Assembly (NCBI RefSeq): GCF_019203185.1
Contig: NZ_CP078093.1
Span: 1,833,058 to 1,897,057, forward strand
From: Crassaminicella indica
GTDB lineage: Bacteria > Bacillota > Clostridia > Peptostreptococcales > Thermotaleaceae
Direction: 5' to 3'
Length of the DNA: 64,000 nt
In this document: positions 20,418 through 36,135 of the stretch, piece by piece
How the letters are laid out: each line of letters begins with the position of its first letter
Position numbering within the stretch: position 1 is the first letter of the stretch
Program-made: the position numbers and the translations under genes
Notes under the pieces: model-generated
Database searches by the model: none
What the model was told of the DNA's origin: nothing
The model's input: the letters and a program-made list of their open reading frames with translations, nothing else

Positions 20418-20429
20418 GGAGAGAGGAAA

Positions 20430-21383
20430 ATGTCACAAGAATGGCTTGTACAGGTGAAAAATCTTTGTAAATACTATCCTGTTTTTAAAAAGAAATTTTG
20501 GGAAAAGAAAACCTATGTAAAAGCAGTAGATAATGTTTCATTTTCTATACGAAGGGGCGAAACCTTTGGATTGGTAGGAGAAAGTGGATGTGGAAAGTCA
20601 ACAACAGCCTTTATGATAAATGGATTACTTCAGCCAACTCATGGTGAAATAAAGTTTGATGGCAAGGATATTACACTTGTTAAAGAAAAAGAAATTCGTG
20701 AAAAAATGCAAGTGGTTTTCCAAGACCCATATGCTTCTTTGAATCCTAAAAAAAAGATAGGGTGGATTGTAGAAGAACCTCTTTTGATTCACAAAAAATA
20801 TAGTAAAAAAGAACGGCAGAAAAAGGTATCTGAGATGATGGAATTGGTAGGTCTTGATGAAAGCTTTAAAAGTCGTTATCCTCATGAATTAAGTGGAGGA
20901 CAAAGGCAGCGAATAGGTATTGCAAGAGCATTGATGCTAAGTCCTCAGTTTATAATTGCAGATGAACCTGTTTCAGCTTTAGATGTTTCTGTGCAGGCGC
21001 AAATATTAAATCTTTTGAAAGAGTTACAGTCAAAGCTTAGATTAACTTATTTATTTATATCACATGATTTAAATGTAGTACATTATATGTGTGATCGTGT
21101 AGGGGTTATGTATTTAGGCAAAATTGTTGAAGAGGCTCCTGTTGAGAAGATTTATGAAAAAGCAATGCATCCTTATACAAAGCTATTATTATCTACGCTT
21201 TCTGGAGGTGTAGATTTTGATGAAAATCAGATATTTTTAAAAGAAGAAAGTTTATTAGAAAATAGTGGAGAAGGATGTGCGTTTTATCATAGATGCCCTT
21301 ATGCAATGGATGTATGTAAAAGATTGTTGCCAAAACTAGAACAAGTAGAAAGGGAACATTTTACTGCTTGCCATCTTTATTAG
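20430..21383 (+). CDS. Peptide ABC transporter ATP-binding protein (DppF type)
   Basis: A 317-aa ATPase with Walker A GESGCGKST (about 50-58), Q-loop FQDPYASLNPKK, signature LSGGQRQR and Walker B IIADEPVSALDVS. Its C-terminal Cys set is CAFYHRCPYAMDVC...C. It is the last gene of the peptide operon. Confidence 0.93.
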   Translation: MSQEWLVQVKNLCKYYPVFKKKFWEKKTYVKAVDNVSFSIRRGETFGLVGESGCGKSTTAFMINGLLQPTHGEIKFDGKDITLVKEKEIREKMQVVFQDPYASLNPKKKIGWIVEEPLLIHKKYSKKERQKKVSEMMELVGLDESFKSRYPHELSGGQRQRIGIARALMLSPQFIIADEPVSALDVSVQAQILNLLKELQSKLRLTYLFISHDLNVVHYMCDRVGVMYLGKIVEEAPVEKIYEKAMHPYTKLLLSTLSGGVDFDENQIFLKEESLLENSGEGCAFYHRCPYAMDVCKRLLPKLEQVEREHFTACHLY

Positions 21384-21400
21384 ACTTGTGGTAAGAATAC

Positions 21401-21422
21401 TCCCACTTTTAAAGTGGGGGAT
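21401..21422 (+). terminator. Hairpin after the peptide operon
   Basis: A TCCCACTTT / AAAGTGGGGGA hairpin 18 bases after the last stop, without a good T-tract. It probably ends or protects the operon transcript. Similar hairpins also mark ends of IS200/IS605 elements, so a relic is possible. Confidence 0.45.
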
Positions 21423-21507
21423 GAATTTAGCAAAATACATTTTACTATATAACATGCTTTTTAGTAAAACATGATATGATAGATATGTAGGAAGGGTGTA
21501 GTTCACT

Positions 21508-22149
21508 ATGTATAATATTAAGGCGGTTATTTTTGACTTAGATGGTACACTAGTAGATTCTATGTGGGTTTGGAGACAAATAGATATAGATTACCTAGGA
21601 AAAAGAGGAATTGCTTTACCTGATGATTTGCAGAAAAAAATAGAGGGTATGAGCTTTACAGAGACAGCTCATTATTTTAAAAAAAGATTTAAGCTAGAGG
21701 ATTCTATAGATGAAATTAAGGATGAATGGATGAAAATGACAAAGTCTTATTATGAAAATAATATAGAATTAAAGACAGGTGTATATGCTTTATTGATGAA
21801 ATTAAAAAATAAAGGTATAAAGATGGGTATAGGTACAAGTAATGCAAAGGAACTAGCTGAAGCAGTTCTTAGAAAAAACAATATTATTGACTTTTTTGAT
21901 ACAATTCGTACTAGCTGTGAAGTTGAAAAGGGAAAGCCACATCCCCATATTTTCCTAAAGGTCGCAGAGGATTTAGGCGTTATGCCTGATCAATGTCTAG
22001 TTTTTGAAGATACCTATGCAGGTGTACTTGCAGGAAAAAGAGCTGGTATGAAGGTATTTGCGGTTGCAGATGAAAGTTCATCCTTATATAAAGATGATAT
22101 TAGTTCGTTAGCAGATCAATATTTGGAAGGATTTGAAGAGATTGCATAA
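21508..22149 (+). CDS. HAD-superfamily phosphatase (beta-phosphoglucomutase-like)
   Basis: A 213-aa cytoplasmic hydrolase. HAD motif I DLDGTLVDS starts at the nucleophile Asp10, motif II is GIGTSN, and motif IV is VFEDTYAGVLAGKRAGMKV. A helical cap lies between residues 20 and 90. This is the subfamily of beta-phosphoglucomutases and sugar or nucleotide phosphatases, and the substrate cannot be read from sequence. It starts at ATG 21508 after GAAGGGTG and ends with a terminator. Confidence 0.85.
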   Translation: MYNIKAVIFDLDGTLVDSMWVWRQIDIDYLGKRGIALPDDLQKKIEGMSFTETAHYFKKRFKLEDSIDEIKDEWMKMTKSYYENNIELKTGVYALLMKLKNKGIKMGIGTSNAKELAEAVLRKNNIIDFFDTIRTSCEVEKGKPHPHIFLKVAEDLGVMPDQCLVFEDTYAGVLAGKRAGMKVFAVADESSSLYKDDISSLADQYLEGFEEIA

Positions 22150-22172
22150 GCCGAGTAGATACTCGGCTTTTT
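22149..22172 (+). terminator. Terminator after the HAD gene
   Basis: AGCCGAGTA / TACTCGGCT hairpin followed by T5. Confidence 0.85.
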
Positions 22173-22247
22173 ACAAATAAATAGCTTTAAAATGAAATAT
22201 AATATAAGCAGTATAAATAAGCATAAGCTTATAAATGAGGTGATACA

Positions 22248-23618
22248 TTGATAGAGTTACCAAATGATTTTAAAGAAAAAATGAAAATATTATTAAAAGA
22301 AGAATATAAAAAATTTATAGAGAGTTACAATGATCCAAAGACACAGGGATTAAGAGTAAATACACTTAAAATAGCTTGTAAGGATTTTGAAAAAATAAGC
22401 CCATTTAGTCTAAAAAAGGTTTCTTGGGCAGAGGAAGGGTTTTATCATGAAGTAGACAAGCCTGGAAAACATCCTTATCACGAAGCAGGTCTTTATTATA
22501 TCCAAGAACCTAGTGCTATGGCAGTAGGAGCATTACTTGATCCTCAGCCGGGAGAGAGAATATTAGATTTATGTGCAGCACCAGGTGGAAAATCTACTCA
22601 TATTGCTGCTAAATTAAAAGGAGAAGGATTATTAGTATCTAATGAAGTTTATCCAGCAAGAAGTAAAATCCTTTCTCAAAATATAGAAAGATTGGGGATT
22701 AAAAATTGTATTGTTACTAATGAAAGTCCAGCCCGACTGTCAAAAAAGTTTAAAAATTATTTCCACAGAATTTTAGTAGATGCTCCTTGTTCAGGGGAAG
22801 GTATGTTTCGAAAGGATCCAGATACTTGCAAAGAATGGAGTATAGATAATGTATCTATGTGTGCAGAAAGACAGCTAGATATTTTAGAACAAGCACAAAA
22901 AATGCTAATGCCAGAAGGTATTTTAGTATACTCTACATGTACCTTTTCGCCAGAGGAAAATGAAGGGGTAATAGAAAAATTCATTAAAAATTATCCTGAA
23001 TTTTATATAGAAGCAGTAAAAACTTATGATGGATTTGCTAAAGGAAGACCTGAGTGGATATTATCAGATGATGAAGATTTAAAGAAAGCTATTAGGCTAT
23101 GGCCTCATCAATTGAGAGGGGAAGGGCATTTTATTGCAGTTTTAAAGAAAAGAGATGGAGAAGTTGCTAAAATAAAAAATAAGAAAAAGCAGATAGATAA
23201 GAAGGCTTTGAAGGATTACTATGACTTTGGGAAAAAATATCTAAATAAAATACCAGAAGGCAAATTTATAGTTTTTGGAGAACAACTATATATTTTACCA
23301 GAGGATACTATTAATCTTGAAAATTTAAAAGTAATTCGACCAGGATTGCATTTAGGAACTTTGAAAAAAAATAGGTTTGAACCATCTCATGCATTTGCTC
23401 TTTCTTTAAAGCCTGAAGATGTAAAAAATAATATTTTTATGGATGCGATGAGTCAAGATATAATAGCTTATTTAAAAGGAGAGTCTATAAGCTTTGAAGG
23501 AAAAAACGGATGGAACCTTGTAAATGTAGATGGATATTCCATAGGATGGTGTAAAATTGTAAATAATATACTTAAAAACCATTATCCAAAAGGATTAAGA
23601 TGGGTTGGACAAATATAG
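22248..23618 (+). CDS. RsmF-like rRNA (cytosine-C5-)-methyltransferase
   Basis: A 456-aa RsmB/NOP2/Sun-family m5C RNA methyltransferase. The SAM site is DLCAAPGGKSTHIAA near residues 107-121. The two catalytic cysteines are in DAPCSGEG (about C181) and STCTFSPEENE (about C231). The C-terminal 150 residues match the RsmF/YebU-type extension with a PUA-like end. Start TTG 22248 follows TGAGGTGAT. rlmD follows 17 bases after the stop, forming an RNA-modification pair. Confidence 0.87.
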   Translation: MIELPNDFKEKMKILLKEEYKKFIESYNDPKTQGLRVNTLKIACKDFEKISPFSLKKVSWAEEGFYHEVDKPGKHPYHEAGLYYIQEPSAMAVGALLDPQPGERILDLCAAPGGKSTHIAAKLKGEGLLVSNEVYPARSKILSQNIERLGIKNCIVTNESPARLSKKFKNYFHRILVDAPCSGEGMFRKDPDTCKEWSIDNVSMCAERQLDILEQAQKMLMPEGILVYSTCTFSPEENEGVIEKFIKNYPEFYIEAVKTYDGFAKGRPEWILSDDEDLKKAIRLWPHQLRGEGHFIAVLKKRDGEVAKIKNKKKQIDKKALKDYYDFGKKYLNKIPEGKFIVFGEQLYILPEDTINLENLKVIRPGLHLGTLKKNRFEPSHAFALSLKPEDVKNNIFMDAMSQDIIAYLKGESISFEGKNGWNLVNVDGYSIGWCKIVNNILKNHYPKGLRWVGQI

Positions 23619-23635
23619 GAAATTAGGAGGAAATT

Positions 23636-25000
23636 ATGAAGAAAAAAGACATAATAGAATTAAAAATAGAAGATTTAGAATTTCCATTAAAGGGGATAGG
23701 ATTTTATGAAGATAAAAAAGTATTTGTAAAAAATACTATTCCGGGACAAGTTGTTCGTGTTTTCATAAAAAAAGTTAGAAAAGATTATGCAGAAGGAAAA
23801 TTATTAGAAGTAATAGAAAGAGCTTCTATAGAGGAAGCATCTTTTTGTAAGCACTTTGGTGCTTGTGGTGGATGTAGCTATCAGACAGTTCCTTATGAAA
23901 AGCAGCTTCATATGAAAGCAGAACTTGTGAAAGGATTATTAGATGAAGCGAATATAAAGGATTATGAATTTTTAGGCATCGAAGCCAGTCCAGAAGAATT
24001 TGCCTATAGAAACAAAATGGAATATTCTTTTGGCAATGAAAAAAAAGGTGGAGAATTGAATTTAGGAATGCATAAAAAAGGAAAATTTCATGATGTTGTA
24101 ACGGTAGATCAATGTAAAATTGTGGATGAAGATTTCAATACTATTCTTTCAAGTATGTTAAATTATTTCCGGGGAAAAGGTGTACCTTTATATAACAATA
24201 AAACTCATGAGGGATATTTAAGACATTTGATTGTAAGAAAAGCAAGGAAGACAGAAGAGATTCTCATTAATCTTGTAACTAGTACACAAATTGCATTTGA
24301 TATGACTGAATTGATAGAGCTTATGAAAAATCTAAAATTAGAGGGAAAACTTGTAGGATTTTTGCATACCTTTAATGATAATTTATCAGATGCAGTTGTA
24401 AGTGATGAAACAAAGCTTTTATGGGGACAAGATTATTTTACAGAAGAAATACTCGGATTAAAATTTAAAATATCAGCTTTCTCATTTTTTCAAACTAATT
24501 CACTAGGTGTAGAGAAGCTATATAGTATGGTACTAGATTTTATGGGAGATGCAGATAATAAAACTGTATTTGATTTATACTGTGGTACAGGAACTATTGG
24601 GCAAATTGTAGCGAAAAGAGCTAAGAAGGTTATAGGTATTGAACTGATAGAAGAAGCAGTAGAGGCTGCTAATAAAAATGCCAAAATGAATGGACTTAGC
24701 AACTGTAAGTTTATAGCAGGTGATGTTTTGAAAAAGATTGACGAATTAATAACCAAACCAGATATAATTATTCTTGATCCACCTCGTAGTGGGGTTCATC
24801 CAAAAGCTTTGAAGAAGGTATTAGATTATAGAGCACCTGAAATTATTTATGTATCCTGCAATCCAAAGAGTTTAGCTGAGAATCTTATAGAAGTACAAAA
24901 GGCAGGATATAAGGTGGAGAAGGTAAAATGTATGGACATGTTCCCACATACGGCGCATGTGGAGACGGTTGTGTTGATTAAAAGAAAACTGTCCAATTAA
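23636..25000 (+). CDS. rlmD: 23S rRNA (uracil-C5-)-methyltransferase RlmD (RumA family)
   Basis: A 454-aa enzyme that methylates U in 23S rRNA with SAM. It has an N-terminal TRAM domain (about 1-60) and cysteines for a 4Fe-4S cluster at 71, 77, 80 and 160. The SAM-binding region is [11 protein letters not shown], followed by DPPRSGVHP and the catalytic SCNP motif (nucleophile about C408). The general-base Glu is in HVETV (about E443). The 3' end is a known integration site for conjugative elements in Firmicutes. A second rlmD-like C-terminal segment occurs 8.5 kb downstream (33442-33492). Confidence 0.9.
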
Positions 25001-25193
25001 AACAAACCTTTTCAATTTAAAATAAACTTTTTGCATGTTTAAAATAAAGTCTTGTAATGAAAGAGTTTGTTCGATATATGGTCAAAAAAAATGGAAGTAA
25101 AAATGGAATTGTTAAGGGGAAAGAATCATGGTTTGAGTCTTTATTCTGGACCCTTATTTTTTTGCATAAAGGATTATGGGGGATGGTTCAATT
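25001..25193 (+). pseudogene. Truncated unknown gene cut by an IS66 relic
   Basis: A frame from ATG 25057 reads about 45 residues (MVKKNGSKNGIVKGKESWF.. ending ..GLWGMVQL). It then runs straight into the IS66 right inverted repeat at 25194. There is no ribosome site of note, and I do not recognise the protein. Confidence 0.35.
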
Positions 25194-25644
25194 GTATCCG
25201 TCAAAAAATAGATGCATAGAAAATAAATTTAATACCTGATAAAATTTAATCCAGTAGGAGAATTATCTCTTACTGGATTGATCTTTTTTTAGTTCAATTT
25301 TTAGTTCTTTTGGGATTTCACTAGCCAAAGGAAGAAGCTCACTATGCTCTTCTCTAAGCTTTTTTTCGATTTCATAAAACTTGGCACAATAATTAAACCC
25401 TATTAATGCTCTTGATTCTTTGAGGGCTTCTGTAATATGGTTGATGGATACTAATGTTATTTTCTTTACAAAAAGATCTAATAGTTCCTGTATGAAAAGA
25501 AAATCTATTCAAAATATCTTCCCAGTCAATAGCTGATGAATCTTCCTTCATAACAGGTAACTCCTCCTATACAATAGATTTTGTTATCTGTTATTCTAGC
25601 AAAGTAAGGTACAAACTACTAGGCAGAAAATCTTTGACGGTTAC
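25194..25644 (-). mobile_element. IS66 derivative with internal deletions (copy B)
   Basis: A 451-bp element in minus orientation with both IS66 ends: GTATCCGTCAAAAAATAG at 25194 and the GTAACCGTCAAAG end at 25644. Read on the minus strand, the first 56 or so codons of tnpA (MKEDSSAIDWEDILNRFS..) are fused to scraps of tnpB/tnpC. The transposase end ..[17 protein letters not shown] is kept. It cannot move by itself. I see no 8-bp target duplication. Confidence 0.8.
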
Positions 25645-25734
25645 AGATGGAACGCCTTGTGAGCTCGAAAGTTTCATGCAGGGTGTGGTCGATGGGAAAA
25701 GGTGGAGATAATTTCAAACCCTTACCTATTCGAA
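25645..25734 (+). mobile_element. 3' end of a group II intron (domain V/VI-like remnant)
   Basis: The run GGAACGCC...CTCGAAAGTTTCATGC...GGTG has the form of domain V: a stem capped by GAAA, with the paired AACGCC..GGTG arms typical of bacterial introns. GGTGGAGATAATTTC and CTTACCTATTCG follow, the usual last bases before the 3' splice site. No reverse-transcriptase gene remains, because IS66 copy B abuts it on the left. Confidence 0.5.
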
Positions 25735-25741
25735 TAGTTCA

Positions 25742-26208
25742 TCAGAAGACTTGGCAGTCTAAAAGATATTCATTACATATGTCTCTGATGTACTTCACTT
25801 GGTTTTCTGTTAAACTGTATAAACAATATTCCGTTCCAAAATGTCTTGTATTAAACAGTGCAGAATCATCATTGAATTCTCTAAATAAGGTTACATCAAA
25901 CCATTTGAGCCTTTTATTGTTTATTACACAATTATATTTTAATAATTTTACAATATTTTCACTTAGAACACACTTGATAATTTTTTGTTCATTTTTATAT
26001 CCATAATTTTTCACTGATAATATATCTTTTGTCTCTGAAATTTCTTTAATTATATCTTTATCATTTTCCCAACATCCAAATTCAATATATTTGCATAATG
26101 GGATGATATATGATATTAGTCTTTGCCAAAATTTTTTATACCTTATGTTGAATATGTCTTCTGAGCTATTTGTACGAATAACCAAACCTTTTTTGAATAT
26201 TTTTCCAT
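25742..26208 (-). pseudogene. Unknown protein gene, 5' frameshift
   Basis: The open frame covers about 147 residues from 26185 but lacks a proper start. Just upstream an ATG (26206-26208) with an AAAGGA site begins MEKYSKK. It would join the frame if the A6 run at 26189-26194 had one more A, so the gene appears broken by a 1-base deletion in that run, or the assembly lost one base. The joined product would be about 155 aa, with many aromatic residues and no membrane segment. I do not recognise it; it has the look of an accessory-island protein. Confidence 0.5.
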
Positions 26209-26423
26209 ATATAAAATTCCTTTCCTATGTTTATTTTAGAATAAAAAATCAATATAGCTCTCTTCTTTTAGAATACCATAATATAATTAGTATAGAAATA
26301 ATAATATACATATAATTTATAAAAATTCCTTTGATAACAGTGCTATAATCATTAAATTGATGTAATATTTTAAATAAAGATAGGTATTGAGTTATTGATA
26401 TTTCTTTATAATTAACACTAAAA

Positions 26424-26612
26424 TTGTCTACTGTTACTTATTATAGTAAATTGTCATATGATGAATTCTTAGACTATTATGAAAGCAATAAATATAGTAT
26501 CAACAGAAATATAGTGACTTATAACGGCGCGGATTTCATAATTTCAGAAGAGGAGTATGATGAAGATTATAAGTATTATTTTATAGATATTGATTTGTAT
26601 ATGAATGAATAA
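26424..26612 (+). CDS. Possible 62-aa acidic protein or fragment
   Basis: A frame from TTG 26424 with no good ribosome site gives a Tyr/Asp/Glu-rich peptide ending ..YYFIDIDLYMNE. A good terminator follows, so it may be the tail of a real gene whose 5' part was lost. Function unknown. Confidence 0.35.
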   Translation: MSTVTYYSKLSYDEFLDYYESNKYSINRNIVTYNGADFIISEEEYDEDYKYYFIDIDLYMNE

Positions 26613-26621
26613 TGTATTAAA

Positions 26622-26653
26622 GACCAAGTTTGAAATTTTAACTTGGTTTTTTA
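26622..26653 (+). terminator. Terminator
   Basis: ACCAAGTT / AACTTGGT stem with a 9-base loop, followed by T6. Confidence 0.75.
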
Positions 26654-26851
26654 TGTTGTACGAGGCATGTTACCGAGTCGATGGTTTGAAAGAATAGTTC
26701 AGTTGAGAATGAGAGTAGAATTTTATTCTTTTTATGTAGCTAAAAATATATGGTACTTTGAGTAAAATAATACCAAATTATGATATAATATTGGTGTACA
26801 TGTTAAATAAAGGTAAACTTGATTTTGTTTTCAGGTGGGATTGAAGCAGCA

Positions 26852-27185
26852 ATGTACCTTATTGATAAGAAGAACAACCGAATTTCAAAGATAAAAGAGA
26901 AAACCTTTTCAGAACTCTGGTTTAAGGAAAGGGAACATCTATAGGAATGGCTGGCAAATGAACCCTCAGCTTTTGGTGAAGATTTACTTATCATTTAGAA
27001 AGAATTTGATGGTTTTGTAGATACAAAGGAACGGTTTGATTTCCTTACTTTGGATAAGGACGGCAACTTGGTAATAGTTGTTCCTTGACATTGAACAGAT
27101 TATATCTATGAAGGATGCTCAGGACTATGTAATTAAAATGGTTGAAAAAGTTCTAAAAGATTATTTGAAGAAATATAAGAAGTAA
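26852..27185 (+). pseudogene. Decayed PDDEXK-type (DUF91/DUF4268-like) nuclease gene
   Basis: From ATG 26852 the frame reads MYLIDKKNNRISKIKEKTFS..LWFKEREHL, then a stop, EWLANEPSAFGEDLLII, a stop, KEFDGFVDTKERFDFLTLDKDGN and two more stops. This order matches the N-terminal nuclease-like region of proteins annotated as DUF91 or DUF4268. Another frame (about 27092-27185) encodes an intact-looking C-terminus ..SMKDAQDYVIKMVEKVLK.., so the middle has been deleted. The gene is clearly dead. It ends 54 bases before the GIY-YIG fusion gene. Confidence 0.6.
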
Positions 27186-27238
27186 GTGGATTTGGTGATG
27201 TCAGAAGAAAGAAGGAGATATCAAAGGAGGTAGAGAAG

Positions 27239-28630
27239 TTGAGGATTGCTTTAATTTCATGTACAAGCAGTAAAAAAACATATAAATGTCCAGCAAGAGA
27301 ATTGTATTCAGAAAGCCCAAGATTCCGGCTGGCATATGATTTTGCAAAGCTAGTTTCAGATAAAATATTTATTCTTTCGGCAAAGTATGGTTTGGTGCCA
27401 GAGGATAGGGTCATTGAGCCTTATAACGAAACATTGAAAGAGAAGAGTGCTCAGGAACGTCGAAATTGGGGAGATACAGTGTTAAACGAATTACGTAAAG
27501 TTTCTGATATAGAACACGATGAGTTTATTGTTTTAGCGGGTAAAGTTTATAATGAAAAATTGCTGCCCCATCTAAGTAAATTTTGGATACCTCTTAAAGG
27601 TAAGGCATTGGGTAAGTGGATTCCTGAGTTAGAAAGACTGATTCACCTTGAAAAAGAAACAGATAAAGTAGATGTCCTTCATATGCTTTTTAATGGCTTG
27701 CCACGACTTGATTGGATGATGATAGATGAGATTCCATATCAAAACGGCATTTATATCATGTTTGAAAAGGGCGAAAGCTATCGAGGTATGGATAGGATAG
27801 TTCATATAGGTACTCACCGAAGTCAAGGCCGGTTAAGGAAAAGGTTAAAAGACCATTTTGAGAAAGAAGATGCTGATGGTAGCATCTTCCGAAAAAATAT
27901 CGGACGTGCTTTTTTGAATATGAATTCTGATCCGTATTTACGAGTATGGGAAATTGATATGCACCATTCTAAGAATGTAAGAAATTACGGGCATTTAGTC
28001 AATGCACGGTTGGAAACTGAACTTGAGGCAAAAATTAGCCAGTATTTAAGAAATAATATCACTTTTGTTTGTTTTCCAGTTGATGAAGAAGCAGAACGGT
28101 TGAGATTGAAAAAAGGTATTATTGCAACACTTAACAAACATCAAATGTTTGGTCCGAGTAATAATTGGTTGGGCCTGAATAGCCCTGTGCTGGATATTGC
28201 GAACAGTGGTCTTTGGAATAGACAGGGGTTGAAAGGGCAACTATTATCAGATGAGGAATTAGAGCGAGTTAAGTGGCTTGCCAGATTTGGAAACGATGGT
28301 TATAGAAATAATAAGGGTCATAGGACACAAGTAAAAAGAGCCGTAAAGCATATCAGAACGGTTGGAGAAATTCCTGATTCAGGTCGGAAAACGGCTGATG
28401 ATGTAAGACAGTATATAGAAAAATTGTTGCAGGAAGCAAAGATGAGAGGCGAAGATTATATTGATTTGGTTTCAGGAAATATTCATAAGCAGTTGGGGAT
28501 GAAAAACAGGATGCCGCAGGTGTGCATAATTATGTATGAGAAAATGATGCCTGGTGATGAAGTTTTGCATACAATCCCGAGTGGTAAGAGTTCAACTATA
28601 AAAATCAGGTATGATCTAAAAAATAGATAA
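27239..28630 (+). CDS. DUF6884/YaaA-like domain fused to a GIY-YIG nuclease-like domain
   Basis: A 463-aa three-part protein. Residues 1-145 (starting MRIALISCTSSKKTYKCPA, with LSAKYGLVPEDRVIEPYNETL) look like the DUF6884 or YaaA-like domain found near nucleic-acid modification and phage-defence genes. Residues about 165-300 look like a GIY-YIG nuclease fold: NGIYIMFEKGE, RIVHIGTHRSQGRLRKRL, and the later NARLETELE. The last 90 residues resemble a small domain seen at the C-terminus of accessory proteins. Start TTG 27239 follows AAGGAGG. Its GC content and codon use (CGG, GGC, GCC) exceed those of its neighbours, so it was probably acquired. A role in defence or in processing modified DNA is inference. 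Confidence 0.6.
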   Translation: MRIALISCTSSKKTYKCPARELYSESPRFRLAYDFAKLVSDKIFILSAKYGLVPEDRVIEPYNETLKEKSAQERRNWGDTVLNELRKVSDIEHDEFIVLAGKVYNEKLLPHLSKFWIPLKGKALGKWIPELERLIHLEKETDKVDVLHMLFNGLPRLDWMMIDEIPYQNGIYIMFEKGESYRGMDRIVHIGTHRSQGRLRKRLKDHFEKEDADGSIFRKNIGRAFLNMNSDPYLRVWEIDMHHSKNVRNYGHLVNARLETELEAKISQYLRNNITFVCFPVDEEAERLRLKKGIIATLNKHQMFGPSNNWLGLNSPVLDIANSGLWNRQGLKGQLLSDEELERVKWLARFGNDGYRNNKGHRTQVKRAVKHIRTVGEIPDSGRKTADDVRQYIEKLLQEAKMRGEDYIDLVSGNIHKQLGMKNRMPQVCIIMYEKMMPGDEVLHTIPSGKSSTIKIRYDLKNR

Positions 28631-28737
28631 ATATATGGATTAATTTGGGTTGGGAGTTTGATATAGGGTGAATGATATAAATATAAATGTCTGTTAATGT
28701 CAAGATAAGACTGGTGTTAGTATAATATTGTAGACAC

Positions 28738-28970
28738 GAAAAGCCGAACACTTTAAAATAGAGATAAGAAAAGGAAGTGTTAATAATGGCTAGAGGTCAA
28801 AAGAGATATATAGATGAATTCAAGTATTTAAAGAAAAAACCAAGTAATAGAGAGCTAGAGAATAAAAGATAGAGAAAGAAATACTAAATATTTATAAAAA
28901 AAGTAGAAACCGCTATGGAGCACCTAAAATAAATGATGGAACTCCACAAGAACTTATAAAAATAAAGTGA
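28738..28970 (+). mobile_element. IS3-family relic
   Basis: It begins with TGGTGTTAGTATA.., similar to the outer end of the intact IS3 at 32703-32715. The start of an orfA (MARGQKRYIDEFK at about 28786) is fused to an internal piece of orfB in shifted frames (..NIYKKSRNRYGAPKI..). Stops and deletions leave no product. Confidence 0.6.
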
Positions 28971-29001
28971 ATGGCACTATACTGGATACATCGGCAAAAG
29001 G

Positions 29002-29117
29002 AAACTGTTTCCATATAAAGAAAAACGAATTACTGATACTCAATTGTGATGGTTGATAACAAGTTGTAAAATAGCAAACCGGTTAATGTAGAATTTTACT
29101 TTAACCGGTTTTTTGTT
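29002..29117 (+). repeat. Duplicate of the acetyltransferase 3' end and its terminator
   Basis: 116 bases nearly identical to 36595-36710. They encode the last residues of the GNAT gene (KLFPYKEKRITDTQL) and the AAACCGG hairpin terminator (29076-29114). This copy has no gene body, so it marks an old recombination between the two IS-rich segments. Confidence 0.85.
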
Positions 29118-29179
29118 CTTTTTTGAATGGTTATTCTCATAAAATATTAAGCTACGCTTATTTTATATTTAAAAAAGAC

Positions 29180-29436
29180 AAACCACTGAAAAAATTCACT
29201 AGTTTGTCAGCAACCTGAATCCTTAAACTTAAGGACTGCGATATCTTCGCCTTATTAGGTGATGCTGCTTATGACAGCGTGAAACTGTTTAAATTATGCG
29301 AAGAGCTATCATTTCACCTAGTTACTGATATAAATCTCAGAAAATCTAAGTCAGTTGATAATATTAAGAATGAGTATAGAAAAAGAAACTTCTATTTTAT
29401 CGATTCTCCTATAGGAGAAAAGATATATAAACAAAG
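29180..29436 (+). mobile_element. DDE transposase fragment (IS4-like) truncated by an IS66 end
   Basis: The frame reads LKDCDIFALLGDAAYDS.. and then HLVTDINLRKSKSV and IKNEYRKRNFYF. The GDAAYDS motif is the second catalytic Asp region of IS4/IS1182-type transposases. The reading frame stops exactly where the IS66 left end begins at 29437. Confidence 0.6.
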
Positions 29437-29501
29437 GTAACCGTCAAAGATTTTCTACCTAGTAGTTTGTATCTTACTTTGCTAGAATAACAGATAACAA
29501 A
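29437..29501 (+). mobile_element. IS66 left-end stub (copy C)
   Basis: It starts GTAACCGTCAAAG and matches the left 65 bases of the IS66 at 35154. Nothing else of the element remains. Confidence 0.75.
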
Positions 29502-29624
29502 AAAATTGTTAGAATGTAGAGGAAATTTATAAATTGGATTATAATGGATACATAAGCAGAAATATTATACAGTTATAAAGATTTAAGAGTCTAAACAATT
29601 TACTTAAAATAGTTGCAGGTGATT

Positions 29625-30470
29625 ATGATGAATTACATTGTTTTTGATTTAGAATGGAATAGTTTTAAAAATATAAAGGGACAGGTTTACTATTATAAGA
29701 AATTTAACGAGAAAACAAAATTTTTTGATGAAATAATAGAAATTGGTGCAATAAAATTAAATGATAGATTAGAATATATTGATAGTTTTAGAGTATATAT
29801 AAAACCAACCATTTATAAAAAAATAAATCCAAGAATTATAGAACTTACAGGAATTGCTGATGAGGATTTAAAATATGGATTTGATTTTAAGAAATGGTTA
29901 GGGAAAGATTATATATTATGTTCTTGGTGTGATACTGATATCAAAGTACTAAAAAGAAATATAAAATATTATAATCCAAAATATAAAATAGAATCGCTGT
30001 TACTTCCATATATAGATATTCAAAAATATTGTTGTGAAGTCTTAGGATATGATAGACGGGTAAGTTTGCATGAAGTAATAAATGCAGAAAACATAGTTGC
30101 ATCAACAGATAAACTTCATCAAGCATTAGATGATACTAAATTAACAGTGGATATTTTTAGAAAAATATTTGATAAAGAAAAAATAAGAAATTACATAATT
30201 AATGATGTAGATTGTATTTATGATTCAATGAATTTAAATATTACAGTCGACATGTTAGATAGAACTAGATTAAGAGCTAGATGTGCAAGTTGTGGTAAAT
30301 ATAGTAAAAGATTAAAATTGAGTTTTGATAATAAAAAAAGAAGAGTAAGTATTTTAAGCTATTGCAGTAGTTGTGGAATATATACGAAGCAAAGAATAAA
30401 GATAAAGAAAAATTTATTAGGGGATTTAGTATATGTTTCGAGGAAGAAAATAGTTGAATTATCAAGATAG
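29625..30470 (+). CDS. DEDD-family 3'-5' exonuclease with C-terminal zinc ribbon
   Basis: A 281-aa cytoplasmic exonuclease-like protein of the ERI1/KapD type. The DEDD motifs are visible: Exo I FDLEWN, DEIIEIGAIKL with a downstream ELTGI motif, Exo II CSWCDTDIKVLK and Exo III HQALDDTKLT. A Cys-x2-Cys...Cys-x2-Cys pair (CASCGKY and YCSSCGIY) forms a likely zinc ribbon at about 235-262, which may bind RNA or DNA. The first ATG after the AGGTGAT site is at 29625, with another at 29628. It sits among mobile remnants without partners. Confidence 0.7.
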   Translation: MMNYIVFDLEWNSFKNIKGQVYYYKKFNEKTKFFDEIIEIGAIKLNDRLEYIDSFRVYIKPTIYKKINPRIIELTGIADEDLKYGFDFKKWLGKDYILCSWCDTDIKVLKRNIKYYNPKYKIESLLLPYIDIQKYCCEVLGYDRRVSLHEVINAENIVASTDKLHQALDDTKLTVDIFRKIFDKEKIRNYIINDVDCIYDSMNLNITVDMLDRTRLRARCASCGKYSKRLKLSFDNKKRRVSILSYCSSCGIYTKQRIKIKKNLLGDLVYVSRKKIVELSR

Positions 30471-30633
30471 TAAATAAGGAGGAATGTAAGGGTATTACAA
30501 GAATAATCAATACTTAAAAAATTAGAAGGATTTAATCAGTTAATAGAGGATTTATTGAAAAAGAAGAACGAAGTAAGTAGGGTGTAATTTACGACAGGAG
30601 CCTATTGTTATTTAATAAGGAGATAAAAACTAA
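30471..30633 (+). other. Gap with a small gene remnant
   Basis: An AGGAGG site stands before an ATG that hits a stop at once. A frame downstream reads ..LKKLEGFNQLIEDLLKKK.. to a stop near 30585 with no start. It is probably the tail of a lost gene. Confidence 0.35.
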
Positions 30634-31356
30634 ATGGAAGAATTGATTAGATTATATAAAGAGATGATAGAGTTTGTAAATAAAAAGAATATTAGAACTA
30701 AAGATAAAAAATTGACATCTTTATTTCATGTGAAAGGAAATTTATATAAAGGAGATTTGATGATAATTGGTAGAGCTGTGAATGGTTGGGATGAAGGTGA
30801 ATGGGTGCATGGTGAATTAAATAGTATAGATGAAATTGAAAGATATGTTGAAAAAATAATGAATATAAGTATTACAACAGAGAGGTGTCCACTTAAGTGG
30901 GTAAAGGAATGTTGGGGTAATACAACAGGATATAATACTAAAAAATCAGCTTTTTGGAGAACTGTACAGAAGCTTTTAATAGAAAAAGAATTAAAGGACT
31001 ATTGGTGGAGTAGAATAATTTGGACAAATCTTTATAAAATAGCACCTTATGAAGGCAATAATCCAAAACTAACTTTAATGAAACTTCAATTAGACAAATG
31101 TTGTGAAATATTGAAAAAAGAAATAGAAATATATAGACCTCAAAACATTGTTTGCTTTACTGGGGTAGATTGGTTCGAAGTATTTAGTAATCGAATTGAC
31201 AATATAAATCTTTTAGAGGTAGATGATAAAACAGTTGATGCAGTAGGCAAGTATATGTTTAATGATAATACCTTTTCAAATATTATTATTGCAAAACATC
31301 CACAAGGGAAAGATGAAAATATGATGGTACACGAAATACAAAAATATTGTATATAG
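30634..31356 (+). CDS. Unknown protein, faintly uracil-DNA-glycosylase-like
   Basis: A 240-aa soluble protein with ATG 30634 behind AAGGAG. The blocks DLMIIGRAVNGWDEGEWVHG near residues 41-60, IVCFTGVDWF and a late AKHPQGK are arranged like the fold of the uracil-DNA glycosylase superfamily: an N-terminal motif, a middle strand and a C-terminal His loop. The match is weak. It is rich in Trp. No partner gene is near; an IS3 follows 105 bases downstream. Function unknown. Confidence 0.55.
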   Translation: MEELIRLYKEMIEFVNKKNIRTKDKKLTSLFHVKGNLYKGDLMIIGRAVNGWDEGEWVHGELNSIDEIERYVEKIMNISITTERCPLKWVKECWGNTTGYNTKKSAFWRTVQKLLIEKELKDYWWSRIIWTNLYKIAPYEGNNPKLTLMKLQLDKCCEILKKEIEIYRPQNIVCFTGVDWFEVFSNRIDNINLLEVDDKTVDAVGKYMFNDNTFSNIIIAKHPQGKDENMMVHEIQKYCI

Positions 31357-31501
31357 CTAAGATAAAGTTCTGTGTTAATGACATAGAAATTTATTATATT
31401 GGGAAAAATGAGCTGATAATTTGCAAATAACAAAAATTTGATATTAGAATGTTCAAAGGAATGGATCTATGTCAATATTTTGGACAACAAAAAGTTAGTT
31501 T

Positions 31502-32317
31502 TTAACATACAATTTTAGCCTCATCTTCTACTTGTTGAGGGGTTTTATATTTTAATGATCCATGAATACGACTTCTATTGTACCAACTTTCAATGTATTC
31601 AAATATAGCTAATTTAGCGGTATAAAAATCTATATATTTTACATGATGAATTTCTTCTTTTTTTAATACAGAATGGAATGATTCAATAGGAGCATTGTCA
31701 TAAGGACACCCTTTACGACTAAAGGAATGCTGTATCCCCTTAGATTTAAGGTACCTCCCAAATTCCATGCTTGTATATTGCGAGCCTAAATCGGAATGCA
31801 ATACAAGTGTATCTGTAGGGTTTTGTGAAATATAAGCATTCTTTACAGCCTGTAAGGCTACATTTACAGTCATAGCAGTATCAAATGAATACCCTATTAT
31901 TTTACGAGAATGAAGATCCATAACAGATGCAAGATAGCACCATCCATCTTTTATCGTATGTATATAAGTGATATCCGTTACCCATTTTTGATTAAGTGCA
32001 TTGGTTTGAAAGTCACGATTAAGTAGATTAGGATATTCTATGACTTTCTGTTTTGTTGAATAAGGTCTATACTTTTTGACTGTAATAGCATAAATACCAA
32101 GCTTTCGCATTATTCTCTGTACTCTTTTTATGCTAACTGTGGATCCTTTTTTTAAAAGCATATGATATATTTTAGGAGCACCATATCTTCTTTTAGATTG
32201 AGTATAGATGTTATAAATTGTTTCTTTTAGTTCTTTATTTTCAAATTCTCGATTAGAAGGTGTATGACAAAGTGCATTATAATAAGAGCTACGAGAAACT
32301 TCTAGTATTTTGCACAT
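31502..32317 (-). CDS. IS3 transposase OrfB (DDE domain)
   Basis: 271 aa from its first ATG; in the element it should be made as an OrfAB fusion by a -1 frameshift. The integrase core has the DDE triad in WVTDITYI, VLHSDLGSQYTS and PIESFHSVLK. An HTH_21 region (..KRRYGAPKIYHML..) lies at the N-terminus. It moves the element. Confidence 0.9.
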   Translation of the reverse strand: MCKILEVSRSSYYNALCHTPSNREFENKELKETIYNIYTQSKRRYGAPKIYHMLLKKGSTVSIKRVQRIMRKLGIYAITVKKYRPYSTKQKVIEYPNLLNRDFQTNALNQKWVTDITYIHTIKDGWCYLASVMDLHSRKIIGYSFDTAMTVNVALQAVKNAYISQNPTDTLVLHSDLGSQYTSMEFGRYLKSKGIQHSFSRKGCPYDNAPIESFHSVLKKEEIHHVKYIDFYTAKLAIFEYIESWYNRSRIHGSLKYKTPQQVEDEAKIVC

Positions 32318-32376
32318 AGCTTGTATAGAATGTTTATCAGACTGCTCTGTAATAACTTTAAATAATTGATCGTCAT

Positions 32377-32652
32377 TTATGCTTTGACGAATATGGTGAT
32401 AGCCTTTTTTAAGATAGTATTCTCCTCCTGAAGGCGTGCAATTTGTTTTTTTAATTCTGCTACATCATTTAATGTAGTAGTTTTTCCATCTGATATAGAT
32501 ATAGGAGAAAATCTTTTAATCCATTTATATATAGTGACATCTGAAACACCATATTCGCTGCTTAATTCTTTTACAGAACGACCAGAATAATAAAGATCTA
32601 CAATTGTCTTTTTAAAATCTTGATTGAATTTTTTATTGTTCATTATGGACAC
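32377..32652 (-). CDS. IS3 OrfA (helix-turn-helix)
   Basis: A 91-aa DNA-binding protein with a helix-turn-helix (VKELSSEYGVSDVTIYKWIKRF) and a C-terminal leucine-zipper region. Near its end is the slippery A6G heptamer (minus strand, at 32404-32410). A -1 shift there enters orfB without a stop, giving the OrfAB transposase. Confidence 0.88.
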   Translation of the reverse strand: MSIMNNKKFNQDFKKTIVDLYYSGRSVKELSSEYGVSDVTIYKWIKRFSPISISDGKTTTLNDVAELKKQIARLQEENTILKKAITIFVKA

Positions 32653-32715
32653 ATTCTCTCAGTTATTATTTTATATATTTAACCAATTTGTGTCCATAAA
32701 ACTATACTAACACCA

Positions 32716-32811
32716 TTTGTTGATAAAATAGTTGTAGCTGATAGTGGGAAAATAAAGATATACTATAAATTTAATGGGTCAGAGAAAGTAATGAAAGAGT
32801 TAATAGGTTAA
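32716..32811 (+). pseudogene. C-terminal remnant of a site-specific recombinase
   Basis: The frame reads FVDKIVVADSGKIKIYYKF.. to ..MKELIG and a stop. The pattern VDKI-x-V..KIKIYYKF resembles the last strands of large serine recombinases. The 5' part is missing beyond the IS3. The identification rests on 30 residues and is tentative. Confidence 0.4.
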
Positions 32812-32816
32812 TATAG

Positions 32817-32843
32817 GGGTCTTGCAAATGCAAGGCTCTTTTA
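32817..32843 (+). terminator. Terminator after the recombinase remnant
   Basis: GTCTTGCA / TGCAAGGC hairpin followed by a T-rich tract. Confidence 0.7.
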
Positions 32844-32922
32844 TTATAATTTAGACAAGATGATGGAAGAAGATAAAGATACACTTGTAGAATGATATGA
32901 AGTAAAACAGAAGAGGTGTAGA

Positions 32923-33309
32923 ATGAAAAAAAATAAAGTATTAATTTTTACAAAAATGCTTTGTACACTATTTGCAATTGGAACTATAATTTTATTGTAT
33001 ATAATGTATAAAGATATTGATATTGATTTCAAATTCATAATAGGATATGTATTTTTAACTTTTTTCTTACTTTTATACATTCCTATTATTACCATTTTAA
33101 ATGCAAGAAAATTAAAATGGGCTGAGATGAGGAAAAGATTTTTTAAGTTTATTGCTTTATTTATTTTAGTTGGTACTTTGCATTATATTATTGATTACAT
33201 TTTTAGACCATCAAAGATAGGTTTTTTTAGAGCGTTTTCTAGTGCTGTAGGTTCAGCCTTTGGCTTATCATTTATAGATGTTACACTTTTAAAAAAGAAA
33301 GAGGATTAA
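32923..33309 (+). CDS. Small membrane protein of unknown function
   Basis: A 128-aa protein with three or four hydrophobic helices (about 8-28, 37-60, 74-96 and a weak one near 105-120) and a charged tail LLKKKED. ATG 32923 follows AGAGGTG. I do not recognise a family. It lies between the recombinase remnant and the rlmD-like tail. Confidence 0.6.
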   Translation: MKKNKVLIFTKMLCTLFAIGTIILLYIMYKDIDIDFKFIIGYVFLTFFLLLYIPIITILNARKLKWAEMRKRFFKFIALFILVGTLHYIIDYIFRPSKIGFFRAFSSAVGSAFGLSFIDVTLLKKKED

Positions 33310-33666
33310 GAAATTTTATGACACTTTATTCTTAAAATATGACATAATAGAATCTTGGTATTAACATTATTTTTTACAGAGCCTTGATTTATATTATGGC
33401 GAATTAATATATAAGCTATTACATAAATCATCTACACCTAGCACACACTACATGTGGAGATGGTGGTACGATTACAACGTCAGAACCCTTGATTTTACTG
33501 GAGTTTAAGCAGTTTTATGACTTCTACAGTTTTAGCAAAAATAGCGAGAATTACCCCCAAAAAGACCTAAAAAGGGGTGTCAAAATCAAAATCGTAATAT
33601 GACCTGGTATGCGGGAACACGTCAACCAGCAGTAGTTTTTTTACTGTCTATTATTTTCAAATATTA
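33310..33666. other. Gene-free stretch with an rlmD-like tail
   Basis: Apart from the 51-base rlmD-like segment (33442-33492) I see only AT-rich sequence and an ACCCCCAAAAAG..AAGGGGTGT motif near 33550-33580. No gene can be supported. Confidence 0.4.
33442..33492 (+). repeat. rlmD-like C-terminal segment, possible attachment-site remnant
   Basis: The frame HTLHVEMVVRLQRQNP-stop matches the C-terminus typical of RlmD/RumA (HTxHVExVV..). At DNA level CATGTGGAGA-x-GGT at 33451-33463 is shared with rlmD at 24956-24968. The stop codon just upstream shows that no gene body is present. This is what an integrated element leaves when it enters the 3' end of rlmD, although a fragment of another rlmD homologue is possible. 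Confidence 0.5.
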
Positions 33667-34527
33667 TCAATTTTCACTGTCAAGTGAATCAAAAAAAATA
33701 AACTCTCTTAATATTTTTTGAGACGGTTTATAGTTTTTAATTAAATCAGTATATTCTTCAACATACCATTTGTTTAGATATTTTATATATTTACAAGTAT
33801 TATTAATATCATCTTCCAAGTTATCTGCAGCAATTATATTTTGTAAATTTGAATTAATCCCATATATATGGATGCCTGGATTAATTAAAAGTGGCAATTG
33901 GCCAACAATAAAACTTGTATTGCATAAATAAAATAATCCAAAATATATTTCTGATGGCTCCATATCTTTGTATCTTGTTAAATAAACATTTGCATCTTCT
34001 TTAAAACGTTCAATGCTAAGCAGAATTTTTTCAATCCATTTAACTTCCCGGTTAAACCTTTCATACACAATTGCGTTTTCATTGAGCTTAATATGTGGAA
34101 GTGTTCTCTTTATCATTTCAAAATTTAAATGCTGATCAATATCCAAGTCACCGATAATATCAATTAAACCGTTATTTACACAGGTATAAATTATATCACC
34201 CCAAATGCTTGATAGATCTTGAAGTAATAATTCAATTTCTCTATGTCTAGCACATCTTAAAGGAAATGACTCGATATCTTTCTCTTTAGCCCGATGGTAA
34301 TCTGGAAAGAAATTTACTAATAAATAGAATACATAACTTACAACATACCCCAGACTTAAACTTAACCATATTGTAGAATTGGATGATTTAAGAAATAAAG
34401 GTTCTGCAAAAGTAGGAATGCATTCCCAGAGTAAATAATCACTTTCTTTTATTATTACTACAAGTACAGGAAAAAGTAAAATTGTGAGTAATTGAAAGTA
34501 CTTGTGCCTAATGATGAATTCTTTCAT
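33667..34527 (-). CDS. Two-helix membrane-anchored protein of unknown function
   Basis: A 286-aa protein with two N-terminal transmembrane helices (about 12-30 and 50-72) and a large cytoplasmic domain with conserved-looking Trp and Asp residues. I do not recognise it. Its ATG overlaps the stop of the upstream XRE regulator gene (34524-34527, ATGA), so the two form an operon. The pairing of a repressor with a membrane protein would fit a small stress or phage-response unit, but that is a guess. Confidence 0.55.
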   Translation of the reverse strand: MKEFIIRHKYFQLLTILLFPVLVVIIKESDYLLWECIPTFAEPLFLKSSNSTIWLSLSLGYVVSYVFYLLVNFFPDYHRAKEKDIESFPLRCARHREIELLLQDLSSIWGDIIYTCVNNGLIDIIGDLDIDQHLNFEMIKRTLPHIKLNENAIVYERFNREVKWIEKILLSIERFKEDANVYLTRYKDMEPSEIYFGLFYLCNTSFIVGQLPLLINPGIHIYGINSNLQNIIAADNLEDDINNTCKYIKYLNKWYVEEYTDLIKNYKPSQKILREFIFFDSLDSEN

Positions 34528-34738
34528 ATCCTTTCCCCATTCTTATCAACGAAATACCCTTCAAATTCGCAATCCAAAGCTTTTGCAATCGCTTCTAATT
34601 CCTTCATTGAAAAGTTATCCCGCTTTATTTATTAGCCATATTCTGATTTGTAGTGCCAAGCCTTTTGCTGAGCTCTACAATCGTCACATTTTTTCTCTTA
34701 AGTAAGATTCGGAGCTTTTCTCCCATTGTCAGTTTCAT
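34524..34738 (-). pseudogene. XRE-family repressor gene with a frameshift
   Basis: From ATG 34738 the frame reads MKLTMGEKLRILLKRKNVTI and then VELSKRLGTTNQNMANK, a standard Cro/C1 helix-turn-helix, then hits a stop. In another frame the rest follows: NFSMKELEAIAKALDCEFEG and YFVDKNGERI. The full repressor would be about 70 aa. A 1-2 base deletion near 34620-34628 explains the break. Confidence 0.7.
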
Positions 34739-34925
34739 TAAATATCACCTGCCTAAGTTAAATAATACACCATATAGTGAATATCTGCAATAAAATCATA
34801 TCCCTCAATTGTAAAATGAAATTCCATAGCATTTTAATGAATAAAGTCCTCAAATAGTAATGAAATCTGCTTAAAAGATCCTATGGATTTTCATGATACA
34901 AAAATAACTGAATGGTTTATATAAC

Positions 34926-34963
34926 AAACAGGAAAAGTGAGTAAGTTCATGATTCCTGTTTTA
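34926..34963. terminator. Hairpin near the IS30 remnant
   Basis: AACAGGAA / TTCCTGTT stem with an 18-base loop and T4. The rest of 34739-35031 shows no gene. Confidence 0.5.
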
Positions 34964-35031
34964 TTATGTATTTATTTCAATATTCTTGATTGTTACGGTT
35001 AAATAGCTGGCGGCATGAAAGGAGATTTATC

Positions 35032-35153
35032 ATGTCTAAGTATTTAACCTTTGAAGACCGTCTTGAAATAGAAGTTTCACTAAAAGATAATCATTCTTTT
35101 GGTGAAATTGCTAGAAAATTAAATAAAGATCGCACTACAATTTCTAAAGAAAT
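35032..35153 (+). mobile_element. IS30-family transposase N-terminus, cut by IS66
   Basis: ATG 35032 behind AAGGAG begins MSKYLTFEDRLEIE and continues to FGEIARKLNKDRTTISKE, the helix-turn-helix of IS30 transposases. The frame is interrupted by the IS66 left end at 35154. Confidence 0.75.
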
Positions 35154-35246
35154 GTAATCGTCAAAGATTTTCTGCCTAGTAGTTTGCACCTTACTTTGCT
35201 AGAATAACAGATAACAAAATCTATTGTATAGTAGGAGTTACCTGTT

Positions 35247-35573: not shown

Positions 35574-35726
35574 ATATAGATAAAATAGATACAGTATACT
35601 TAGCCTGTGGGGCTACTGATCTTAGGAAAAGTATTGATGGATTTTAGTTATACTACTATCGCTTAGAAAGAAATAAGTTTAAATGGCCTATGTCAAAAGA
35701 AGAAGCCCTAAAAGAATCAAGATTTT
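35567..35726 (+). pseudogene. IS66 tnpB remnant
   Basis: It starts MLNIDKIDTVYLACGATDLR and continues to KSIDGF before a stop at 35645-35647. The C-terminal scrap [19 protein letters not shown] follows in another frame. About 60 residues are missing between them. Confidence 0.7.
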
Positions 35727-36060: not shown

Positions 36061-36135
36061 TTCTCCTACTGGATTAAATTTTATCAGGTATTAAATTTAT
36101 TTTCTATGCATCTATTTTTTGACGGATACTTTAAA

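What the first reader, a model, noticed from the sequence alone, without database searches (positions are those of the whole stretch)
26852..28630. DUF6884/YaaA-like plus GIY-YIG fusion next to a dead nuclease: possible defence system
One intact 463-aa protein combines a domain often seen near DNA modification and defence genes with a probable GIY-YIG nuclease and a small C-terminal domain. The gene before it is a decayed PDDEXK-like nuclease. Higher GC and its place in an IS-rich island suggest horizontal transfer. The combination could be an endonuclease that acts on modified phage DNA.
Basis: inference. Interest (0 to 1): 0.55.

Follow-up and report, generated by a model that had tools for sequence, protein, structure and literature searches.

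The report
Decaying fused defence-candidate nuclease gene
A bacterium carries an imported gene for a three-part DNA-cutting protein of a suspected but untested anti-virus family, in a copy whose cutting site has been mutated and whose neighbouring nuclease gene is wrecked, so it is probably a fading remnant rather than a working defence.

Summary
[quoted passage not shown] The gene before it is a remnant of a DUF4268/NucS-like nuclease (PADLOC candidate PDC-S11), broken by two internal deletions and stops. The protein matches both halves of PADLOC's candidate system PDC-M57, in one chain. Relatives are patchy in the phylum; several lie in restriction-modification or BREX islands, three with intact PDC-S11 directly upstream. 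A raw neighbour count did not exceed my control. I found no published test of the family.

New: this copy has Lys291 where 17 of 17 aligned relatives have the catalytic Glu, and His189 at the "YIG" position where 18 of 18 have Arg. These are the only changes at 46 family-invariant columns. This copy probably cannot cut, although its frame is intact.

Intact relatives most likely act as single-chain, type IV-like nucleases: DUF6884 and/or the winged helix recognises modified or damaged bases and GIY-YIG cuts. The substrate is unproven; 7-deazaguanine DNA is one candidate.

The parts
27239..28630 (+). 463-aa DUF6884 / GIY-YIG / winged-helix-like fusion protein (PDC-M57A + PDC-M57B in one chain)
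27223..27230 (+). AAAGGAGG ribosome-binding site, 8 bases before the TTG start
   Evidence: sequence
27245..27628 (+). DUF6884 domain (residues 3-130); CxxxK (C8, K12) and LSAxxG (46-51) motifs intact
   Evidence: motifs as given in PMC11701544
27665..28273 (+). GIY-YIG domain (residues 143-345; PADLOC PDC-M57B)
27803..27805 (+). His189 codon at the YIG position; Arg in 18 of 18 aligned relatives
28109..28111 (+). Lys291 codon at the catalytic Glu position; Glu in 17 of 17 aligned relatives that reach it
28388..28621 (+). C-terminal winged-helix-like domain (residues about 384-461)
26813..27079 (+). remnant of PDC-S11 (DUF4268/NucS-like nuclease), equivalent to residues 1-89, with internal stops
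27078..27152 (+). remnant of PDC-S11, equivalent to residues 200-224; the stretch with the IIENK motif of relatives is missing before it
27142..27186 (+). remnant of the 3' end of PDC-S11
25570..25645 (+). insertion-sequence end, one of 8 places in the genome (IS66-like by my own reading)
29437..29502 (-). inverted copy of the same insertion-sequence end, 97% complementary

Best explanation
The gene is a horizontally acquired, single-chain member of the candidate defence family PDC-M57. Intact members most likely act as a type IV-like, modification- or damage-dependent endonuclease: the N-terminal DUF6884 domain (YaaA fold, positively charged cleft, predicted base flipping) and the C-terminal winged helix inspect DNA, and the GIY-YIG domain cuts when an odd base is found. 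In this copy the GIY-YIG active site has lost its metal-binding Glu (Lys at 291) and the conserved basic residue at the YIG position (His at 189), and the upstream PDC-S11 nuclease gene is destroyed. This copy probably cannot cut and is either a young pseudogene with an intact frame or a DNA-binding remnant. Shown: domains, family, substitutions, decay of the neighbour, patchy distribution. Inferred: loss of activity, nuclease function of relatives, and what base they recognise.
For: DUF6884 6e-37; M57B 5e-69, M57A 1.5e-41, DpdC 2.6e-5. Bridge to GIY-YIG: L009 has GIY_YIG_2 at 5.6e-24 and aligns its YIG and Glu to the M57B Arg189 and Glu291 columns. AlphaFold2 on 3 sequences, residues 133-463 (mean pLDDT 63): strand-strand-helix, then strand-helix, with residue 291 in the last helix, and a helix-strand-helix-helix-strand-strand C-terminus; of the 50 VIA rows shown, the only ones on the middle domain are T4 EndoII and three UvrC GIY-YIG entries, Z 5.2. 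Glu291 is kept in 17 of 17 aligned relatives that reach it and in 7 of 8 more distant members; Arg189 in 18 of 18 aligned. Neighbours of some relatives: type III R-M, BREX helicase/PglZ/BrxA, BrxD/Shango-like, type II MTase plus restriction helicase, ZacC. PDC-S11 is intact directly upstream in 3 relatives, shortened in one, and a 3' remnant in another. The gene is absent at DNA level from the 3 other genus genomes and 8 other family genomes searched.
Against: Over the whole gene, changes on the window lineage are not shifted to non-synonymous compared with the sister lineage (38:43 against 20:20, Fisher p 0.85), so there is no general sign of relaxed constraint. One distant relative (L027) also appears to lack the Glu, so a Glu-less member might persist. 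A raw PADLOC count of nearest neighbours does not exceed my control (at least 7 of 26 against 7 of 20). I found no experimental test of the family. Foldseek gave no match at E below 0.001, a VIA Z of 5 is modest, and the model is of middling confidence. Pfam GIY-YIG models match only 2 of 15 family members even at E up to 1.
Confidence: 0.5

Rival explanations
1. It is a DNA-repair protein, not a defence protein: DUF6884 recognises lesions such as abasic sites or ribonucleotides, and GIY-YIG incises as in UvrC.
For: B. subtilis YfjM, a DUF6884 protein, was reported among interactors of abasic and RNA-base lesions (PMC11701544, passages). UvrC is among the fold matches. The raw neighbour count shows no excess of PADLOC matches over the control.
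Against: Patchy distribution (6 of 391 class genomes, 19 of 398 phylum genomes, own genome included, distant members included; none of 3 genus and 8 family relatives at DNA level) and R-M or BREX genes beside several relatives fit defence better than housekeeping repair.
Confidence: 0.2
2. The window protein is an active nuclease with an unusual active site in which other residues replace the missing Glu.
For: GIY-YIG active sites vary: R.Hpy188I has Lys at the YIG Tyr and Gln at the Asn position (PMC2630997, passages). The frame is intact and overall constraint looks normal. A distant member, L027, also appears to lack the Glu.
Against: R.Hpy188I keeps the Glu (E149). A Lys in place of Glu reverses the charge at the metal site; 17 of 17 aligned relatives keep Glu. 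The next residue is also Lys here, Glu in 13 of 16 relatives.
Confidence: 0.12
3. The protein is kept as a nuclease-dead DNA-binding protein after its active site was selected against, for example because uncontrolled cutting became harmful.
For: The two changed family-invariant columns both fall among 5 inferred active-site positions (chance about 0.01 for 2 of 46); frame intact; DUF6884 motifs intact; gene-wide ratio of changes unchanged.
Against: The active-site list was drawn up after seeing the changes; 59 of 81 window-lineage changes are G/C to A/T, so both may be ordinary drift in an AT-rich host; the neighbour gene and flanks are decayed.
Confidence: 0.15
4. DUF6884 is an enzyme that alters a base in DNA (like DpdC), and the fused nuclease cuts DNA lacking or carrying that mark.
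For: DpdC profile hit. DUF6884 genes sit beside DpdA/TGT genes in phages phiFN37 and HRTV-29. DpdC is annotated with DUF6884 in PMC11888242 (passages).
Against: I recognised no DpdA or preQ0 gene beside the M57 loci by eye (ORF starts, the first of them cut; no profile search for dpd genes was run). The DpdC match covers only residues 11-72. Another paper files DpdC under PF03883, not DUF6884 (PMC12839542, passages).
Confidence: 0.08

Closest known systems
PADLOC candidate system PDC-M57 (M57A + M57B)
   Same: Both profiles match strongly, residues 2-133 and 143-345
   Different: Here the two are one chain with an extra winged-helix-like C-terminus. In locus L050 an M57B gene is followed by a separate gene with a sub-threshold DUF6884 match (1.2e-4). 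No paper in the library names PDC-M57
Type IV modification-dependent GIY-YIG enzymes: CMoRE (PD-T4-3) and wH-GIY-YIG (Ahi29725I, Apa233I)
   Same: GIY-YIG nuclease fused to a DNA-reading domain (passages of PMC12923530; passages of PMC11037411)
   Different: The words YaaA and DUF do not occur in either paper; homology of the winged helices not tested
DpdC / YfjM / YaaA (DUF6884, DUF328)
   Same: N-terminal domain, CxxxK and LSAxxG motifs
   Different: No fused GIY-YIG nuclease is mentioned in the passages seen
PADLOC candidate PDC-S11 (DUF4268, NucS_C-like)
   Same: The two longer pieces of the upstream remnant are 80-84% identical to intact PDC-S11 proteins
   Different: Destroyed in the window

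Membership tests
PADLOC PDC-M57 | Match to M57A profile | tested here: met
   PDLC04712 E 1.5e-41, residues 2-133
PADLOC PDC-M57 | Match to M57B profile | tested here: met
   PDLC04713 E 5.2e-69, residues 143-345
PADLOC PDC-M57 | Anti-phage activity | not testable with these tools
   Candidate system only; no paper found under this name
GIY-YIG nuclease superfamily | GIY-YIG fold | tested here: met
   Bridge through L009, predicted topology, matches to UvrC and T4 EndoII Z 5.2. Supportive, not conclusive: model pLDDT 63, no Foldseek row below 0.001
GIY-YIG nuclease superfamily | First motif Gly-Ile-Tyr | tested here: met
   G170 I171 Y172
GIY-YIG nuclease superfamily | Tyr (or Lys as in R.Hpy188I) of the YIG motif | tested here: not met
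   His189; Arg in 17 of 17 relatives and in L057
GIY-YIG nuclease superfamily | Catalytic Arg | tested here: inconclusive
   R202 (17 of 17 relatives) and R198 (15 of 17) are kept; which one is catalytic is inferred from spacing
GIY-YIG nuclease superfamily | Metal-binding Glu | tested here: not met
   Lys291 in the window; Glu in 17 of 17 aligned relatives that reach it. So a degenerate member by descent, not an intact enzyme
DUF6884 (PF21818) | Profile over cut-off, CxxxK and LSAxxG motifs | tested here: met
   127 bits against 30; C8, K12, LSAKYG at 46-51
Type IV modification-dependent restriction enzyme | Cleavage that requires a modified base | not testable with these tools
   Needs biochemistry
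DpdC | Lies in a dpdA-dpdB-dpdC cluster | tested here: inconclusive
   No TGT/DpdA or DpdB gene recognised by eye among the window ORFs listed at about 9200-41250; no profile search for dpd genes was run

The most novel reading that the evidence does not exclude
The PDC-M57 fusion is a restriction enzyme whose reader is a DpdC/YfjM-type base-flipping domain, so that it finds phage DNA by 7-deazaguanine-type or lost bases and cuts it with GIY-YIG; the window copy was specifically disarmed at the active site and is kept as a nuclease-dead DNA binder.
Probability: 0.12. Interest if true: 0.7.

Novelty: new variant of a known kind. Interest (0 to 1): 0.35.

Why it matters
If intact relatives read 7-deazaguanine or abasic DNA through DUF6884, this would be a new reader for a type IV restriction enzyme, give DUF6884 a direct defence role, and offer a tool to detect such bases. 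The window copy itself shows how such a nuclease can be disarmed by point changes while its frame stays open: the PADLOC profiles still score it strongly, a caution for profile-based counts of defence genes.

Tried and rejected
Single-sequence AlphaFold2 failed (mean pLDDT 32.7) and was not used. Sequence search against solved structures found no relative, with the protein (only NrdI, E 0.14 and 0.19) or with the alignment (none). Foldseek on the better model had no row at E below 0.001; the VIA list (50 rows shown of 552 chains with Z 2 or more) is dominated by the C-terminal domain and includes unrelated folds such as Alba and acetyltransferases, so absent families are not excluded. Rfam found nothing at 20000-40000. 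The one scan of genome contigs gave two close loci, L001 and the broken L002. Protein searches of plasmids and phages found only partial matches: 60 plasmids and 14 phages with the whole protein, none covering 80%; 8 plasmids and no phage with the part from residue 140 on. Four protein or alignment scans of viral contigs gave one relative, L057. A pattern scan gave 7 stretches: 5 with a DUF6884 profile hit below 1e-9, L083 at 8e-4, L085 with none, and none with the GIY-YIG profile.

Neighbour control: nearest ORF of 200 aa or more on each side of 13 relatives (26 genes). PADLOC E at most 1e-5: 4 of 16 scanned match (L040 upstream, L049 both, L051 downstream); 3 more are counted as PDC-S11 by identity to L040 and were not scanned; 7 were left unscanned and counted as misses. 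Control: 20 of 28 chosen genes (I dropped 8) from random places in seven of the same genomes, 7 matches, 6 of them to common housekeeping folds by my reading and one to a nicking-endonuclease model. So the raw rate shows no enrichment; the defence link rests on the kind of neighbours and on PADLOC's own listing. The neighbours scanned were mostly picked because they looked like defence genes.

I considered a link with the uracil-glycosylase-like gene at 30634-31356, because a weakly similar protein lies beside relative L051 (23% over 95 residues, E 5e-5) and because DNA glycosylases can defend against phages (PMC11078745, passages; PMC4357717, abstract). Two weak cases, with a gene and insertion-sequence debris in between here, are too little.

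Full report
What is there. The ORF 27239-28630 (+) encodes 463 aa from a TTG start with a good ribosome-binding site. Residues 3-130 are DUF6884 (E 6e-37), with a weak YaaA match. Residues 143-345 match PADLOC's PDC-M57B at 5e-69 and residues 2-133 match PDC-M57A at 1.5e-41; the DpdC profile also hits residues 11-72 at 2.6e-5. Pfam's GIY-YIG models are below their cut-offs here, and across 15 family members only 2 match GIY_YIG_2 at E up to 1. The assignment therefore needed other support: the relative L009 is a clear GIY_YIG_2 protein (5.6e-24) and matches my family profile, built without the window copy. Its YIG and Glu fall on the family's Arg189 and Glu291 columns.

Structure. AlphaFold2 on residues 133-463 with three sequences reached mean pLDDT 63 (best of five models; the others 40-54), with 68-83 in the blocks of the GIY-YIG core. 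The middle domain shows the strand-strand-helix and strand-helix order of GIY-YIG. Among the 50 VIA rows shown, the only ones on that domain are T4 EndoII and three entries of UvrC's GIY-YIG domain, Z 5.2, 84 of 90 UvrC residues aligned. A Z of 5 is modest, and Foldseek itself gave no row below 0.001. The C-terminus reads helix, strand, helix, helix, two strands, as in winged helices, with Z-alpha, CtsR and F-112 among its matches along with other folds.

The active site. In the alignment and the counts, with L057, Glu291 is present in 17 of 17 relatives that reach it (L055 does not) and Arg189 in 18 of 18. The window has Lys and His; codons AAA against GAA/GAG, CAT against CGC/CGT/AGA. Of 46 family-invariant columns these are the only two that the window changes; of the ten other close relatives three change one or two such columns at other places (L041 one, L043 two, L045 one) and seven none. 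Tyr172, Arg202 and His206 are kept; L054 has Tyr at 206, and in R.Hpy188I a Tyr stands four residues after the Arg (Y88 after R84, PMC2630997 passages; that UvrC has the same spacing is recalled). R.Hpy188I has a basic residue at the YIG Tyr but keeps its Glu. Among eight more distant members (L009, L025, L026, L027, L028, L032, L034, L035), seven show the Glu and L027 appears to have Ala. DUF6884's C8, K12 and LSAxxG are intact.

Is the gene decaying? Among columns invariant in 10 close relatives the window changes 19 of 266 (7.1%), against 0.8-4.6% for the others, but its branch is also longer. Polarised against three outgroups the window lineage has 38 non-synonymous and 43 synonymous changes, its sister L041 20 and 20, with 47 ambiguous left out (p 0.85), so no general relaxation is visible; 59 of the 81 changes go from G/C to A/T. 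The gene is 37.0% GC, 8 of 10 close relatives 40.8-41.8%, the window 30.0%: an import drifting to the host's composition. That both changed invariant columns are active-site positions has a chance of about 0.01, but the list of five was made after the fact.

The dead neighbour. An intact relative of the upstream gene (L040) is PDC-S11 (4.5e-165), with DUF4268 and weak NucS_C and PDDEXK_4 matches. The window keeps pieces equivalent to residues 1-89, 200-224 and the 3' end; the stretch with the IIENK motif of relatives (read) is missing. In L040, L044 and L053 the gene is intact, 31-32 bases before the fusion gene; in L047 it is shortened by an internal deletion to an open 304-aa frame, and in L001 only a 3' remnant is left. 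The pair thus looks ancestral in this branch, and in 3 of 6 loci with PDC-S11 traces (window, L047, L001) the gene is shortened or lost beside an M57 gene with an intact frame. The window's genome holds another PDC-S11-like frame elsewhere (39% identity).

Family and surroundings. M57B matches were found in 6 of 391 genomes of the class and 19 of 398 of the phylum, the own genome and distant or partial members included; of 14 control genomes one, Haloferax volcanii, matched. At DNA level the gene is absent from the 3 other genus genomes and the 8 other family genomes searched; one of 8 order genomes has a 68-base match. By protein one genus genome has only the C-terminal domain. Some relatives lie beside a type III R-M system (L040), BREX BrxH/PglZ/BrxA (L044; L053 has genes of the same sequence starts, not scanned), BrxD- and Shango-like genes (L039), type II MTase, a restriction helicase and PDC-S26 (L049), ZacC and a NERD helicase (L051), and an HNH type IV-like gene (L002, a broken M57 copy). 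In L047 I saw only PDC-S11, and in L042, L045, L046, L048, L050 and L054 no such neighbours by reading or in the partial scans. A raw neighbour count with control shows no excess (see Tried and rejected).

Mechanism. For DUF6884, the Pfam paper reports a YaaA-like fold, a charged cleft, a model with a flipped base, and YfjM as an interactor of abasic and RNA-base lesions (PMC11701544, passages). DUF6884 is the domain given for DpdC in PMC11888242 (passages), whereas PMC12839542 gives PF03883 (passages). DUF6884 genes adjoin DpdA/TGT genes in two phages, phiFN37 and HRTV-29, but not recognisably in four other phages looked at, whose genes are mostly annotated as hypothetical. GIY-YIG enzymes with a separate reader are known type IV enzymes: CMoRE (PMC12923530, passages) and wH-GIY-YIG fusions that sense 6mA (PMC11037411, passages). 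By analogy the intact fusion reads an unusual base and cuts; which base is open. This copy most likely cannot cut.

What is known. PDC candidates were found by guilt-by-embedding according to PMC12988326 (passages). No paper in the library names PDC-M57; two papers mention DUF6884, and none of the 20 papers listed for DUF6884 or GIY-YIG, ranked with those holding both first, held both. Two papers mention PDC-S11 (listing only). The library lacks most subscription journals.

Noticed in passing
window 30634-31356: Uracil-DNA-glycosylase superfamily protein (PF03167 E 2.4e-5), weakly similar to a protein beside the M57 relative L051.
   Followed up: partly
window 29613-30470: DEDDh (DnaQ/KapD-like) exonuclease domain followed by a Cys-rich, possibly zinc-binding C-terminus.
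   Followed up: no
window 25570-25645, 29437-29502, 35153-35228: Ends of one insertion sequence (8 places in the genome); ORFs at 35247-35573 and 35683-36060 look IS66-like to me, by reading only.
   Followed up: partly
window 31502-32652: Two ORFs that look like an IS3-type transposase pair, by reading only.
   Followed up: no
L036:5986-6231 and L056:6001-6252: The C-terminal winged-helix-like domain also occurs as an 81-83 aa stand-alone protein, with no Pfam family; in L036 two serine recombinase genes lie upstream.
   Followed up: partly
window, L001 and L047, upstream of the M57 gene: PDC-S11 is shortened or lost in three different ways beside M57 genes whose frame is intact.
   Followed up: yes
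L057:6001-7413: A full-length relative with an intact Glu lies on a 27.7-kb contig of the viral collection, so the gene may travel on a phage-like element.
   Followed up: no
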